Virus record (IMG/VR): IMGVR_UViG_3300013006_000024
Location: 41,163 to 105,162 of that record
DNA: 64,000 nucleotides
DNA from: a virus
Reading direction: 5' to 3' (one strand)
Shown: one piece after another, positions 50,124-62,570 of the stretch
How the letters are laid out: each line of letters starts with the position of its first letter
Numbering within the stretch: position 1 is the stretch's first letter
The notes under the pieces: model-generated
Told to the model about the DNA's origin: nothing
What the model saw: only the letters and a program-made list of their open reading frames with translations
Databases searched by the model: none
Made by a program: the position numbers and the translations under genes

Positions 50124-50139
50124 TAATTTATATAAATTG

Positions 50140-50220
50140 TGGGTAAAGTGGATTCGAACCACTGAAGGCGGAAGCCAGAAGATTTACAGTTTCCCCGTTT
50201 GGCCACTTCGGTATCTACCC
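50140..50220 (-). tRNA. tRNA-Tyr (GUA)
   Basis: Minus strand. Acceptor GGGTAGA pairs with TTTACCC, then A as discriminator; U8-A9; D-stem CCG/CGG; anticodon loop CTGTAAA; a variable arm (CTTCCGCCTTC region); T-loop TTCGAAT. The loop and long variable arm are those of bacterial tRNA-Tyr. Oddities: the anticodon stem GGAAA/TCTTC has an A-C mismatch and the T-stem/acceptor register is one base short, so it may be imperfectly functional. No CCA encoded. Confidence 0.8.
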
Positions 50221-50235
50221 ATACATTATATATTT

Positions 50236-50309
50236 CGCACTCACCAGGAATCGAACCTGGAACCGACGGTTTAGAAAACCGTTGCTCTATCCGGTTGAGC
50301 TATGAGTGC
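50236..50309 (-). tRNA. tRNA-Arg (UCU)
   Basis: Minus strand. A full cloverleaf: GCACTCA/TGAGTGC acceptor, GCTC/GAGC D-stem, ACGGT-TTTCTAA-ACCGT anticodon arm (UCU, reads AGA/AGG), CCAGG-TTCGATT-CCTGG T-arm, G73. No CCA encoded. AGA is a frequent Arg codon in this AT-rich genome. Its anticodon arm matches that of the tRNA-Thr at 62499 except for one base. Confidence 0.93.
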
Positions 50310-50315
50310 AATAAA

Positions 50316-50409
50316 TGGTACCTCCGGCGGGATTCGAACCCGCATTTTGCCCAAATCTAGAGCGACTACTTTATAAGAGTAGGGTCTTAACCAGTTAGAC
50401 GACGGAGGC
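50316..50409 (-). tRNA. tRNA with UAU anticodon (Ile, AUA) and a long variable region
   Basis: Minus strand, CCA encoded (50318-50316). Acceptor GCCTCCG/CGGAGGT, D-stem GTCT/AGAC, anticodon arm CTACT-CTTATAA-AGTAG, T-arm GCGGG-TTCGAAT-CCCGC, A73. The anticodon UAU would read AUA (Ile). The variable region is 22 nt, with a possible GCTC/GGGC stem, which is the class II form normally seen in Leu, Ser and Tyr tRNAs. The amino acid charged is therefore uncertain. Confidence 0.8.
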
Positions 50410-50891: not shown

Positions 50892-50896
50892 GTACT

Positions 50897-50969
50897 TCGC
50901 CTAGGTCAGACTCGAACTGACACTTGAACGATTTTAAGTCGTTTTTCTCTGCCATTGGAATACTAGGCG
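50897..50969 (-). tRNA. tRNA with UAA anticodon (Leu, UUA) but short variable loop
   Basis: Minus strand. Perfect CGCCTAG/CTAGGCG acceptor with C1-G72 and A73, weak D-stem TTC/GAA, anticodon arm AACGA-CTTAAAA-TCGTT, variable loop of 5 nt (CAAGT), T-arm GTCAG-TTCGAGT-CTGAC. UAA reads UUA. Bacterial and T4 tRNA-Leu are class II with a long variable arm; this one is class I. No CCA encoded. Confidence 0.82.
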
Positions 50970-50977
50970 AATAGATA

Positions 50978-58823: not shown

Positions 58824-59750
58824 ATGGGAAAGTATATTACCACCCCCGAAACAATTAGCGGGAAAGTAAGAGTACGTTTACCGATCCAAGCTCAAGCACT
58901 TTCCGGTAGATATACATTTTTAAACCTCGCAAATGCTGAACCAAATCTCGGTACACCGGTTAATCCTGGTTCAGCTTGTCCTGACCCTGACGGTATTAGA
59001 TATGTATTACTTTCAAATAATAGCTACAGTACAACTGTTACACCGCCTACGTCATGGCGTGCATGGTCGGTAGATTACCCACGTATTGCAGCTTATGCTG
59101 AAAAGAGTAGTTTAGCTATTGGAAACGGACAACCAGTAAATAATAATAGTTTAGTTTTTAGTAATTATAATTACAATACAAACAACAAGTATAATAGTCA
59201 AACGTTTGATGAAAATACATTTAACGTATTTTCTATGAGTGGTATTTATTTGTTTAATGCAACAACTGTAGGTGATCCTGCTAGTGCAACAGCATTAATA
59301 GTTACCGAAAATGGTTTTGTTGGTATTAATACTGATAACCCTGATACCAATTTAACAGTAAACGGTAGTATATCTGCTCGTAATAACGCTACGGTTGCTG
59401 GTAATCTTAATGTAAATGGTAATACAAATTTAGGTAATGCAAAAACCGATGTTAATACTTTTAGAGGTGAGGTAAAAATAGCTGATAGTTCGATAAATTC
59501 ATTAATTTTTGGCGATGGTAATTCTAGCTATGATACAAATTTATATAGACTAGATGTAGGTATTCTAAAAACAGACAATGCTTTTTATTGTAATAGTTTG
59601 AGCAGTACTAATGCTTTAACAGGGGCAGATATTAAATTAACAGGGGCAAGTATTATTACACCTTCTTCAACTACTGATTCAGGGCAATTTTTAATATTAA
59701 ATATTAATGGTGCGAATAAAGCCATTAGACTTTGGGACTATATAACATGA
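58824..59750 (+). CDS. Tail fibre protein, 308 aa
   Basis: N-terminal domain with GKVRVRLPIQAQALSGRYTF, then a Tyr/Asn-rich part, then a trimeric-fibre type repeat region (ENGFVGINTDNPDTNLTVNG, SISARNNATVAGNLNVNGNT). 'GvGI-t--P---L-V-G-i' is the usual lead-in of phage fibre shafts and S74-type tails, though no chaperone domain follows. The stop overlaps the next ATG (ATGA). Confidence 0.68.
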   Translation: MGKYITTPETISGKVRVRLPIQAQALSGRYTFLNLANAEPNLGTPVNPGSACPDPDGIRYVLLSNNSYSTTVTPPTSWRAWSVDYPRIAAYAEKSSLAIGNGQPVNNNSLVFSNYNYNTNNKYNSQTFDENTFNVFSMSGIYLFNATTVGDPASATALIVTENGFVGINTDNPDTNLTVNGSISARNNATVAGNLNVNGNTNLGNAKTDVNTFRGEVKIADSSINSLIFGDGNSSYDTNLYRLDVGILKTDNAFYCNSLSSTNALTGADIKLTGASIITPSSTTDSGQFLILNINGANKAIRLWDYIT

Positions 59751-60562
59751 GAATAGCCAATACACAAACAAATTACTTTTACGGTGATACAGTATTCCAA
59801 GGTGGGCTATCTGCCTTGAGCGGAACTACATTTACAAATACTATATTTGCTACTACAACTGCACTGAGTATTATTAATAACGGTACCGGTCCTGCATTAT
59901 ATGTTTCTCAGGCTGCAGGAAGCTCTGATGTAGCTAGTTTTTACGATGGAGATGGTGTTGAAGTGCTTCATGTAGGTAATGCTGCAGGAGGCGGTAACCC
60001 AAAAGGTAAAGTAGGTATTAACGAGAGCGATCCTGATGCAGAATTAACAGTAAATGGTGCTATTAGTAGTAACGATGGTATCACGGTAGCTGGTGGTACT
60101 AGTATTCAATGGAACAGTTCACGTACAACCGTTAATTCAAATAGTGCAGGTTGGTCTGCTGCAGCAAATTATTTTACTACATATCCCTTATTGACCACAA
60201 TTAATTACTCTCCGATAAATTTGTTAGGAGCAATTAATACTAATATTAATCTATTCAATGTACCGACCGGCAGAATTTTTATTGCCAAAACCCTTACTAT
60301 TTTAGTTATAGATGCAGGAGGAACCGCCACAGGAGTAGCACCAATATCTAGGGTTGCAAATGCTTCTAGAAATAATTTAGCTTTGACCAATAATAATACT
60401 CTCCCAACAGCAAATTGCGTAATTGGAGGTACAAATATTGCTCAAAATACTGGCAACACGACAGCTAGTGGAGGTGAAATTGTCGCATTCAGACTAACAA
60501 CCGCAGCTAATAATCTTACCACACTTTCCGCTTCTGCAATAGTAGAAGGCTATCTTATCTAA
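59747..60562 (+). CDS. Tail fibre protein, 271 aa
   Basis: The start is the ATG overlapping the preceding TGA (an upstream in-frame TTG at 59732 is less likely). Residues about 25-115 repeat the module of the giant protein's N-terminus: TALSIINNGTGPALYVSQAA, FYDGDG, GKVGINESDPDAELTVNGAI. The C-terminal half is beta-rich with many Asn/Thr. It may be the distal piece of the fibre begun by 58824. It ends 5 nt before the tmRNA 3' end on the opposite strand. Confidence 0.68.
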   Translation: MRIANTQTNYFYGDTVFQGGLSALSGTTFTNTIFATTTALSIINNGTGPALYVSQAAGSSDVASFYDGDGVEVLHVGNAAGGGNPKGKVGINESDPDAELTVNGAISSNDGITVAGGTSIQWNSSRTTVNSNSAGWSAAANYFTTYPLLTTINYSPINLLGAINTNINLFNVPTGRIFIAKTLTILVIDAGGTATGVAPISRVANASRNNLALTNNNTLPTANCVIGGTNIAQNTGNTTASGGEIVAFRLTTAANNLTTLSASAIVEGYLI

Positions 60563-60567
60563 GAACC

Positions 60568-60975
60568 TGGAGGCGGAGAGAATTGAACTCTCGTCTTGAA
60601 TAATTTCACTCACAAGCACTACAAGTTTATTTTAGTTGAATTTTCATAAGGATTAAACTAAGCAAAAAGCCCTTACTGATAACAATTTTGTACGTATAAT
60701 CTATTAATTGTTAAAACCCAGACTATACGAAAGCCAGTAACACGCTCTACTTTACAAGCTTCAATCTACAGTAGAACGATCGAGTAGTTAAACTAGCTCG
60801 AGTGTGGCTTCTGAATCAACAAAGCCAGTCGATGCAAGAATTGCATCGGCCTCTTCGAGACTCATAGCCATGTCGAAGTTGTCTTCGGCATTTAATATGA
60901 TTGCTATTGGTAACCGGCATGCCCCGGTACTTGCTCTCATGAACTCCACTGTTCAATCGATACCATTACGCCCCC
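60568..60975 (-). ncRNA. ssrA: tmRNA (one-piece) with an unusually long tag
   Basis: Minus strand, about 408 nt. The 5' end GGGGGCG pairs with the 3' end CGCCTCC (then A73). TGGTATCGAT matches the conserved tmRNA TGG-TTCGAC region and a GGGGCATGCCGG segment matches the conserved GCATGCC helix. The T-arm is GAGAG-TTCAATT-CTCTC. The tag frame runs from a GCC resume codon (60889-60887) to TAA (60790-60788): 33 residues beginning AEDNFDMAMSLEEADAILAS and ending ATLELV. No CCA encoded. The element order is the normal, non-permuted one. It releases stalled ribosomes and tags the nascent peptide for proteolysis. Confidence 0.9.
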
Positions 60976-61016
60976 AGTTGTTAATGAACTATTAATAATT
61001 ATGCAGGACAATCCAA

Positions 61017-61985
61017 TTAACTCAACTGTTTTCTATACCACTCTATAGTTTGCTTCAACCCCTCCAAAAAGTCAATCTTTGGTTCCCATTTTAATTCGTT
61101 TTTAATTTTATCGCTATTTGTTGTGTATATAAAATCATGTCCTTTACGGTCTTCTACAAATTCAATAAGCTCTTCTTTCCTTTCTACTAGTTCAATAACC
61201 TGTTTAACAAGTTTAATATTAGTCAAAACTATATCTGTACCGATATTGTATATTTCTCCTGCTATACCTTTATTAAGAACAGCTAAAATACCACGACAAT
61301 GATCTTCTGCATGTATCCACTCCCGCATATTCTTACCTTTACCGTAAACAGGAATAGAAAGGTTAGCTAATGCATTAAGAATAGTCTTTGGTAAAAGCTT
61401 TTCTTTGTGTTGATAGGGACCATAATTATTACAACAACGGGTAACACAGACGTTTAACTTAAAGGTATTAAAATACGATAACGCTAGCAGGTCCGCAGAG
61501 GCTTTTGAAGCAGAATATACAGAACTTGGCTTTAAGATGTCTTTTTCTTTAAACGGTGCGTCTTTTTCATCGAATAATTGACCGTAAACCTCATCGGTGC
61601 TTACTTGAACAAATTTTTCTATATTATGCTTCCTTGAACATTCGAGTAAATTAAATGTCCCAACAATATTTGATGTAATAAAAGGAGTTGGACCGGTAAT
61701 ACTATTGTCTACATGTGATTCTGCTGCAATATTAACCACATATTTGGGTTTAATTTTTGTAAACAAAATATCTAACTGCTTTTTATTTGAAATATCTTTT
61801 TTAAAAAACTTTACACGTCTTCGATACTGCTTTTTCACTTTTAAAAACGCCTTAATGTTATCTTTATTAGCAGCATATGATTCACAATCTATATTATAGA
61901 TAACAAAATCAGTTTCTTCTAACAATCTTATTAGAAAATGTGTACCAATAAAGCCATAGCCGCCTGTAACTAAAATTTTAGACAT
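61017..61985 (-). CDS. rmlB: dTDP-glucose 4,6-dehydratase-like SDR enzyme (RmlB-like)
   Basis: 322 aa. GGYGFIG at 8-14 binds NAD. AAESHVDNS at 87-95 is the RmlB hallmark. VSTDEVYG at 128-135 includes the catalytic T130-D131-E132, and the YSASK motif has Y157 and K161. RCCNNYGPYQ and REWIHAEDHC (YGP--, 'R-W--V-Dh') complete the family set. It converts dTDP-glucose to the 4-keto-6-deoxy sugar, the precursor of rhamnose and related sugars. It has a sigma-70-like promoter, so it is likely early, like the glycosyltransferase cluster. Confidence 0.87.
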   Translation of the reverse strand: MSKILVTGGYGFIGTHFLIRLLEETDFVIYNIDCESYAANKDNIKAFLKVKKQYRRRVKFFKKDISNKKQLDILFTKIKPKYVVNIAAESHVDNSITGPTPFITSNIVGTFNLLECSRKHNIEKFVQVSTDEVYGQLFDEKDAPFKEKDILKPSSVYSASKASADLLALSYFNTFKLNVCVTRCCNNYGPYQHKEKLLPKTILNALANLSIPVYGKGKNMREWIHAEDHCRGILAVLNKGIAGEIYNIGTDIVLTNIKLVKQVIELVERKEELIEFVEDRKGHDFIYTTNSDKIKNELKWEPKIDFLEGLKQTIEWYRKQLS

Positions 61986-62448: not shown

Positions 62449-62498
62449 CTAATAAAGTCGTTTTCTTCATTAAATTCTGCTAATCATGAGATATAGTG

Positions 62499-62570
62499 AG
62501 CCTGAGACTGGGATTGAACCAGTGACCGACGGTTTACAAAACCGTTGCTCTACCACTGAGCTACTCAGGC
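62499..62570 (-). tRNA. tRNA-Thr (UGU)
   Basis: Minus strand. GCCTGAG/CTCAGGC acceptor, GCTC/GAGC D-stem, ACGGT-TTTGTAA-ACCGT anticodon arm (UGU, reads ACA), ACTGG-TTCAATC-CCAGT T-arm, T73. No CCA. ACA is the main codon in the Thr-Pro stalk genes, so this tRNA would support their translation. Confidence 0.92.

What the first reader, a model, noticed from the sequence alone, without database searches (positions are those of the whole stretch)
60568..60975. Phage tmRNA with a 33-residue acidic tag ending in LELV
The tRNA-like ends and the conserved GCATGCC segment identify a tmRNA. The tag frame is 33 codons, about three times the usual bacterial tag (for example 11 in E. coli), and ends in Leu-Val instead of Ala-Ala. 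It could make a tag poorly recognised by host ClpXP, or recognised by a different protease or adaptor. tmRNAs are known in a few large phages (recollection: mycobacteriophages of the Bxz1 type), but the purpose is not settled.
Basis: partly seen in the sequence, partly recalled or inferred. Interest (0 to 1): 0.72.

Follow-up and report, generated by a model that had tools for sequence, protein, structure and literature searches.

The report
Phage tmRNA family with virus-specific long tags
This virus of bacteria carries its own ribosome-rescue RNA (tmRNA), which would add a 33-residue tag found only in related viruses; the tag lacks the usual 'destroy me' ending of bacterial tags, so the virus probably frees stuck ribosomes and changes what happens to the tagged proteins.

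Summary
The minus strand at 60975..60568 is a complete one-piece tmRNA (Rfam RF00023, 87.8 bits). Its open tag is AEDNFDMAMSLEEADAILASTGFVDSEATLELV. No alternative frame gives a short AA-ending tag.

It is one of at least 24 distinct tmRNAs on IMG/VR virus contigs (19-230 kb) whose tags all end in ELV; one has an extra Tyr. The RNA structure shows compensatory changes in 34 of 82 pairs, and the alanine-identity pair G3.U70 is kept. The tag peptide is under purifying selection (pN/pS 0.31 outside search-fixed codons). The tag was not found in bacterial genomes. No SmpB was found in eight virus records, so host SmpB must be used.

Other virus tmRNAs share the tag core DMAxS[LV]xEAD[AE]ILAxxG[FWY] but end differently (AVAA, TLAA, PVA, LAV): the core is kept more than the end. 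In 77 bacterial control tags, lengths were 8-19 and none ended in V. Bxz1-type and Cellulophaga phages also carry long V-ended tags.

Most likely it performs ordinary trans-translation with host SmpB and AlaRS, but with a virus-specific tag that weakens or redirects degradation. The fate of tagged proteins is inferred; the host is unknown. Phage tmRNAs are known; the tag family appears new.

The parts
60568..60975 (-). tmRNA gene (one-piece form), 408 nt including discriminator A; CCA not encoded
   Evidence: Rfam RF00023 87.8 bits; family alignment with 34 of 82 pairs showing compensatory change
60791..60889 (-). Tag reading frame AEDNFDMAMSLEEADAILASTGFVDSEATLELV (33 codons; resume codon GCC at 60889..60887)
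   Evidence: 24 distinct orthologous tag sequences, pN/pS 0.31 outside search-fixed codons
60788..60790 (-). Tag stop codon UAA, in the loop of helix H5
60969..60975 (-). Acceptor stem 5' strand GGGGGCG (G1-G7)
   Evidence: Pairs with 60575..60569; orthologs GGGGCTG/CAGCTCC, GGGGGTG/CACCTCC and GGGCCAG/CTGGTCC all keep G3.U70
60568..60592 (-). T arm (60592..60576), acceptor 3' strand CGCCTCC (60575..60569) and discriminator A (60568)
   Evidence: T-stem compensatory pairs
60914..60927 (-).
   Evidence: Pairs at alignment columns 50-53/60-63 with CG-to-UA double changes in 12 and 3 of 26 sequences
60780..60801 (-). Helix H5 (UCGAG...CUCGA) enclosing the end of the tag frame and the stop
   Evidence: Columns 179-183/197-201, two pairs with compensatory change
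60979..60989 (-). boxA-like leader GTTCATTAACA just upstream of the 5' end
   Evidence: Only exact match in the window; conserved next to all 28 tmRNAs; E. coli rrnB boxA reads TGCTCTTTAACAA
60998..61025 (-). Sigma-70-like promoter TTGAGT-N16-CATAAT
   Evidence: orthologs have TTGACT-N16-TATAAT at the same distance (22 nt). Alone the match is no better than chance in this region; the support is its conservation.

Best explanation
A functional phage-encoded tmRNA carries out trans-translation during infection with host AlaRS, EF-Tu and SmpB. It is made from its own sigma-70-type promoter, or together with a phage tRNA-Met in some relatives. It enters ribosomes stalled on truncated mRNAs, donates alanine, and the ribosome resumes at GCC and adds AEDNFDMAMSLEEADAILASTGFVDSEATLELV. 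The tag keeps a host-like start (AEDNF), then a virus-specific helical core, and replaces the LAA ClpX signal with ELV. The likely result is that ribosomes are freed for phage protein synthesis while the tagged polypeptides are turned over more slowly by ClpXP, or are handed to another adaptor, protease or factor that recognises the core. Shown from sequence: intact and selected RNA structure, alanine identity pair, and a selected tag peptide with a fixed ELV end. Inferred: expression, use of host SmpB, and the altered fate of tagged proteins.
For: RF00023 hit. At least 24 distinct orthologs on virus contigs. 34 of 82 pairs with compensatory change. G3.U70 kept through acceptor-stem double changes. 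Tag pN/pS 0.31 outside search-fixed codons, with 0 of 200 column shuffles as low; ELV fixed in all. Core motif shared with other virus tmRNAs that have different C-termini, with about 5 of 10 core codons differing synonymously per pair, including Ser AGT against TCN. Conserved promoter or tRNA-Met linkage. 77 bacterial control tags are 8-19 residues, 76 ending AA and one VA. Published precedent for long tags switching protease: the Mesoplasma tag is read by Lon, and the AAV variant is degraded more slowly than LAA (PMC9382460).
Against: No expression, charging or degradation data. The host is unknown, so its ClpX, SspB or Lon specificity is unknown. AAV-type ends are still ClpXP substrates in E. 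coli, so ELV may also be. The AlphaFold2 model of the tag is weak (mean pLDDT 69; helix 11-20), and no database match explains the core.
Confidence: 0.6

Rival explanations
1. Ordinary ribosome rescue with an ordinary degradation tag: the long tag and ELV end are tolerated variation, and tagged proteins are degraded by host ClpXP or ClpAP much as usual.
For: V-ended ssrA variants such as AAV are still degraded in E. coli, though more slowly (PMC9382460). Sister phages with the same core end in AVAA or TLAA.
Against: ELV is fixed in all 24 orthologous CDSs at peptide level although third positions vary, and the long core is under selection, so this is not neutral drift.
Confidence: 0.22
2. The RNA acts mainly as a decoy that titrates SmpB or AlaRS and inhibits host trans-translation, as proposed for the TLD-only tmRNA of phage DS6A.
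For: A TLD-only molecule like that of DS6A strongly inhibits tmRNA (PMC4131195).
Against: Here the mRNA domain, pseudoknot stems, H5 and tag frame are intact and selected; a decoy would not need a conserved tag peptide.
Confidence: 0.08
3. Not a working gene: a captured host ssrA fragment, an integration-site relic, or host contamination in the contig.
For: Prophages often integrate at ssrA (PMC11915505), and many IMG/VR tmRNA hits with short LAA tags look host-derived.
Against: Complete gene between phage genes with its own promoter; at least 24 orthologs on virus contigs; the tag pattern has no match in one genome of each of 84,980 prokaryote species.
Confidence: 0.02
4. The tag is a working peptide rather than a degradation signal: it recruits rescued polypeptides to a phage or host factor through the helical core, for storage, inactivation or regulation.
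For: The core is conserved across groups with different C-termini. No Clp protease family match in the 30 LELV-group records searched.
Against: No partner known; no structural or family match to the core.
Confidence: 0.08

Closest known systems
Bacterial one-piece tmRNA (ssrA; Rfam RF00023)
   Same: tRNA-like domain with G3.U70, T arm, alanine resume codon, tag frame with stop in the H5 loop, pseudoknot stems
   Different: 33-codon tag (77 bacterial controls: 8-19), end ELV not LAA, small PK1, CCA not encoded, found only on virus contigs
Bxz1-type mycobacteriophage tmRNA (read here from phage ET08)
   Same: Phage-encoded, long acidic tag of 25 residues (ATDTDATVTDAEIEAFFAEEAAALV) ending in LV
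   Different: Different tag sequence without the DMAxS[LV]xEAD core; actinobacterial host
Cellulophaga phage phi38:1 / Calle tmRNA
   Same: Long tag ending in V (GNNTNAVNAQIEANMEAVNAILNLEVAVGV, our reading)
   Different: Starts with Gly, Bacteroidota host, no clear homology of the tag
Mycoplasma/Mesoplasma extended ssrA tag read by Lon
   Same: Long tag that replaced the ClpXP signal (PMC9382460)
   Different: Ends YAFA, cellular gene, host without ClpXP
Two-piece tmRNA of phages Melnitz and Mosig
   Same: tmRNA in aquatic myophages (PMC9004378)
   Different: Permuted two-piece form (shown for Melnitz), related to host-type alphaproteobacterial ssrA

Membership tests
tmRNA (RF00023) | Covariance-model match over the full length above the gathering score | tested here: met
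   87.8 bits against 47, model 1-374
tmRNA (RF00023) | Acceptor stem with the G3.U70 alanine identity pair | tested here: met
   GGGGGCG/CGCCTCC; kept through compensatory changes in orthologs
tmRNA (RF00023) | Conserved secondary structure (long P2, PK1 stem, H5, later pseudoknot stems, T arm) | tested here: met
   34 of 82 predicted pairs with changes on both sides; pseudoknot second strands not separately tested
tmRNA (RF00023) | Resume codon and short reading frame ending in a stop, translated | tested here: inconclusive
   Frame, stop and purifying selection shown; translation itself not testable here
tmRNA (RF00023) | Alanylation and SmpB binding | not testable with these tools
   No smpB in the eight virus records searched, so host SmpB would be needed
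Canonical ssrA degron (LAA-type, ClpX-recognised) | C-terminus LAA or close variant ending in A | tested here: not met
   ELV in all 24 orthologous CDSs; 77 of 77 bacterial controls end in A
Bxz1-type phage tmRNA | Homologous tag sequence | tested here: inconclusive
   Both long, acidic and ending LV, but the alignment of tags is weak
TLD-only tmRNA (DS6A type) | No mRNA domain | tested here: not met
   Full mRNA domain and tag frame present

The most novel reading that the evidence does not exclude
Large phages have evolved a virus-only class of trans-translation tags built from a host-like start, a conserved helical core (DMAxS[LV]xEAD[AE]ILAxxG[FWY]) and an exchangeable end. The core, not an LAA degron, is the functional signal and delivers polypeptides from rescued ribosomes to a factor other than ClpX.
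Probability: 0.35. Interest if true: 0.8.

Novelty: new variant of a known kind. Interest (0 to 1): 0.62.

Why it matters
Why phages carry tmRNAs has been an open question. This family gives a strong handle on it: the tag peptide itself is under selection, it is virus-specific, and it has lost the degradation ending while keeping an internal core shared with other phage tmRNAs. That makes a clear prediction: the phage needs ribosome rescue with a different fate for the tagged protein. If the core recruits a new factor, it would be a new kind of degron or targeting peptide with possible use as a tool.

Tried and rejected
Alternative frames and resume codons: all contain stops, none conserved. 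Host contamination or bacterial gene: no match to the tag pattern, and 26 matches to a wider core pattern in genomes, none a tmRNA. Phage SmpB: none in eight records. Cyanophage marker psbA family: none in 51 records. Clp protease family: only in four phages of the sister DMAPS/DMAL group, none in the LELV group; these may be head-maturation proteases and were not pursued. Isolated phages with the same tags: none in INPHARED for the LELV tag or the YALAA-ended insert tag, and only weak hits (E about 3) for the DMAPS-type tag. Pfam and PDB matches to the core: none. AlphaFold2 model of the tag: low confidence; the structure search on it was not collected for that reason. Host assignment: TerL nearest to Rhizobiaceae phages at about 40%, tail sheath nearest to S-CAM7 and Vibrio phages at 34-39%; not conclusive. 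A 16S-leader comparison for boxA gave too few rRNA loci.

Full report
Observation. Rfam finds a full-length tmRNA on the minus strand, 60975..60567, 87.8 bits. ARAGORN does not report it, but it does report the same long tag in three orthologs. The tag frame runs 60889..60791 with UAA at 60790..60788. It has 33 codons, nine acidic residues and no basic one. The other frames carry stops in every ortholog. The acceptor stem GGGGGCG/CGCCTCC has the G3.U70 pair, and the T arm is intact; CCA is not encoded. The tRNA-Thr gene at 62570..62498 does not encode CCA either.

Setting. The window is the end of a 105-kb virus record of a tailed phage with a contractile sheath. TerL is T4-superfamily and nearest, at about 40%, to Rhizobiaceae phages. 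The tmRNA lies between a tail-side gene (59732..60562, plus) and an epimerase gene (61017..61985, minus). Just upstream is TTGAGT-N16-CATAAT, which is TTGACT-N16-TATAAT in orthologs at the same distance; other orthologs sit about a dozen bases downstream of a tRNA-Met instead. A motif like the ribosomal boxA, GTTCTTTRACA, stands 1-5 bases upstream of the 5' end of all 28 copies, with up to three differences. Its close form GTTC[AT]TT[AG]ACA occurs 18 times in 622 kb of these loci (both strands counted), and 17 of the 18 are at the tmRNA. E. coli rrnB has TGCTCTTTAACAA. That this works as antitermination is inference.

Family. Neighbour-gene and DNA-pattern searches of IMG/VR gave at least 24 distinct tmRNAs with tags of this type on contigs of 19-230 kb. 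All end in ELV; one is ELVY. RNAalifold on 26 of them gives 82 pairs, 34 with changes on both sides, covering the long P2, PK1, H5, later pseudoknot stems and the T arm. Acceptor stems change on both sides in orthologs yet always keep G3.U70. The tag has pN/pS 0.24 overall and 0.31 when codons fixed by the search pattern are left out; none of 200 column shuffles was as low. Part of the codon choice near the end is tied to H5 pairing, so silent variation there is not free. A degenerate pattern for the tag has no match in one genome of each of 84,980 prokaryote species.

Wider picture. A second pattern found virus tmRNAs with tags sharing a core DMAxS[LV]xEAD[AE]ILAxxG[FWY] but with ends AVAA, AVTA, TLAA, QPVA, QMAV, LLAV and QLAV. 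Between the two groups about five of ten core codons differ silently, including Ser AGT against TCN, so the peptide is what is kept. A third group reads as a host-like AEDN...YALAA tag with a virus-specific insert (SDLLAEAEYIFNNADEFL). A wider core pattern in bacterial genomes hit 26 places, none of them a tmRNA. As control, ARAGORN tags from 77 bacterial tmRNAs of three phyla are 8-19 residues (median 10), 76 ending AA and one VA. The literature gives 10 as the commonest length (PMC11915505). Known phages also show long V-ended tags: ET08 of the Bxz1 species, 25 residues, ALV; Cellulophaga phi38:1, 30 residues, VGV.

Mechanism. The structure, identity pair, promoter and selected frame argue for real trans-translation. 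No SmpB was found in eight of the virus records, so the host's is needed. The end that ClpX reads in bacteria (LAA) is replaced by a fixed ELV. In E. coli the V-ended AAV variant is still degraded but more slowly, and in Mesoplasma a longer tag is read by Lon instead of ClpXP (PMC9382460). The simplest reading is rescue of ribosomes with a slowed or redirected fate of the tagged chain. That the core is kept while the ends differ suggests the core is recognised by something; what, is unknown. It has no Pfam or PDB match, and AlphaFold2 gives a helix at 11-20 with modest confidence.

Comparison and novelty. It is a tmRNA by every test that could be run. It is not a carrier of the canonical LAA degron. 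It resembles Bxz1-type phage tmRNA in tag length and end, without clear tag homology. Phage tmRNAs as such are known (402 of 18,146 phage genomes, PMC9004378; 79 unique in the tmRNA database, PMC11915505). The virus-only tag family with a shared core and varied ends was not found in the papers read. This is therefore a new variant of a known kind.

Limits. All relatives are metagenomic contigs without known hosts. The ortholog set was partly collected with a pattern in the tag itself, which is why selection was recomputed outside it; the same pattern means that tags which have lost FDMAMSL or differ more would have been missed, so 'all end in ELV' holds for the collected set. The genome search for the tag used exact degenerate patterns. 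The SmpB search covered eight records only. No expression or degradation data exist.

Noticed in passing
60979..60989 (-); upstream of all 28 LELV-group tmRNAs: boxA-like leader GTTCTTTRACA directly before the mature 5' end, similar to E. coli rrn boxA; could recruit NusB/S10 to a non-rRNA gene.
   Followed up: partly
60914..60927 and 60887..60890: Resume codon is GCC in all orthologs, and the invariant PK1 loop GGCA could pair with UGCC that includes it; both sides are invariant so covariation cannot test it.
   Followed up: partly
L015, L126, L178, L182, L191, L197, L050, L011: Second long-tag group on virus contigs (for example AEDNTSDLLAEAEYIFNNADEFLAGVEDYALAA), ending YALAA, ELAA or LLAA; looks like a host tag AEDN...YALAA with a 20-25 residue insert.
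   Followed up: partly
L062, L063 (Cellulophaga phages phi38:1, Calle_1): tmRNA tag read here as GNNTNAVNAQIEANMEAVNAILNLEVAVGV (30 residues, ends V); ARAGORN starts it later, and the phi38:1 record has no tmRNA annotated at this place.
   Followed up: partly
G041, G042, G046, G049 (records of L145, L154, L203, L217): Clp protease family homologue in four phages of the sister DMAPS/DMAL tag group, none in the LELV group; may be a head protease.
   Followed up: no
L148 (IMGVR_UViG_3300013123_000008): About 20 tRNA genes around a phage tmRNA with a 24-residue tag AEKSNTFVTPTGELVREYEYALAA.
   Followed up: no
window 50139..50409, 50896..50970, 62498..62570: Phage tRNAs Tyr, Arg, Ile, Leu and Thr on the minus strand; the Thr gene does not encode CCA.
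   Followed up: partly
L003 14325..14561, L008 5293..5513, L009 17940..18158: Group I introns in relatives that share the tail-side gene next to the tmRNA.
   Followed up: no
L078: Tag stop altered so the tag gains one residue (LELVY).
   Followed up: no
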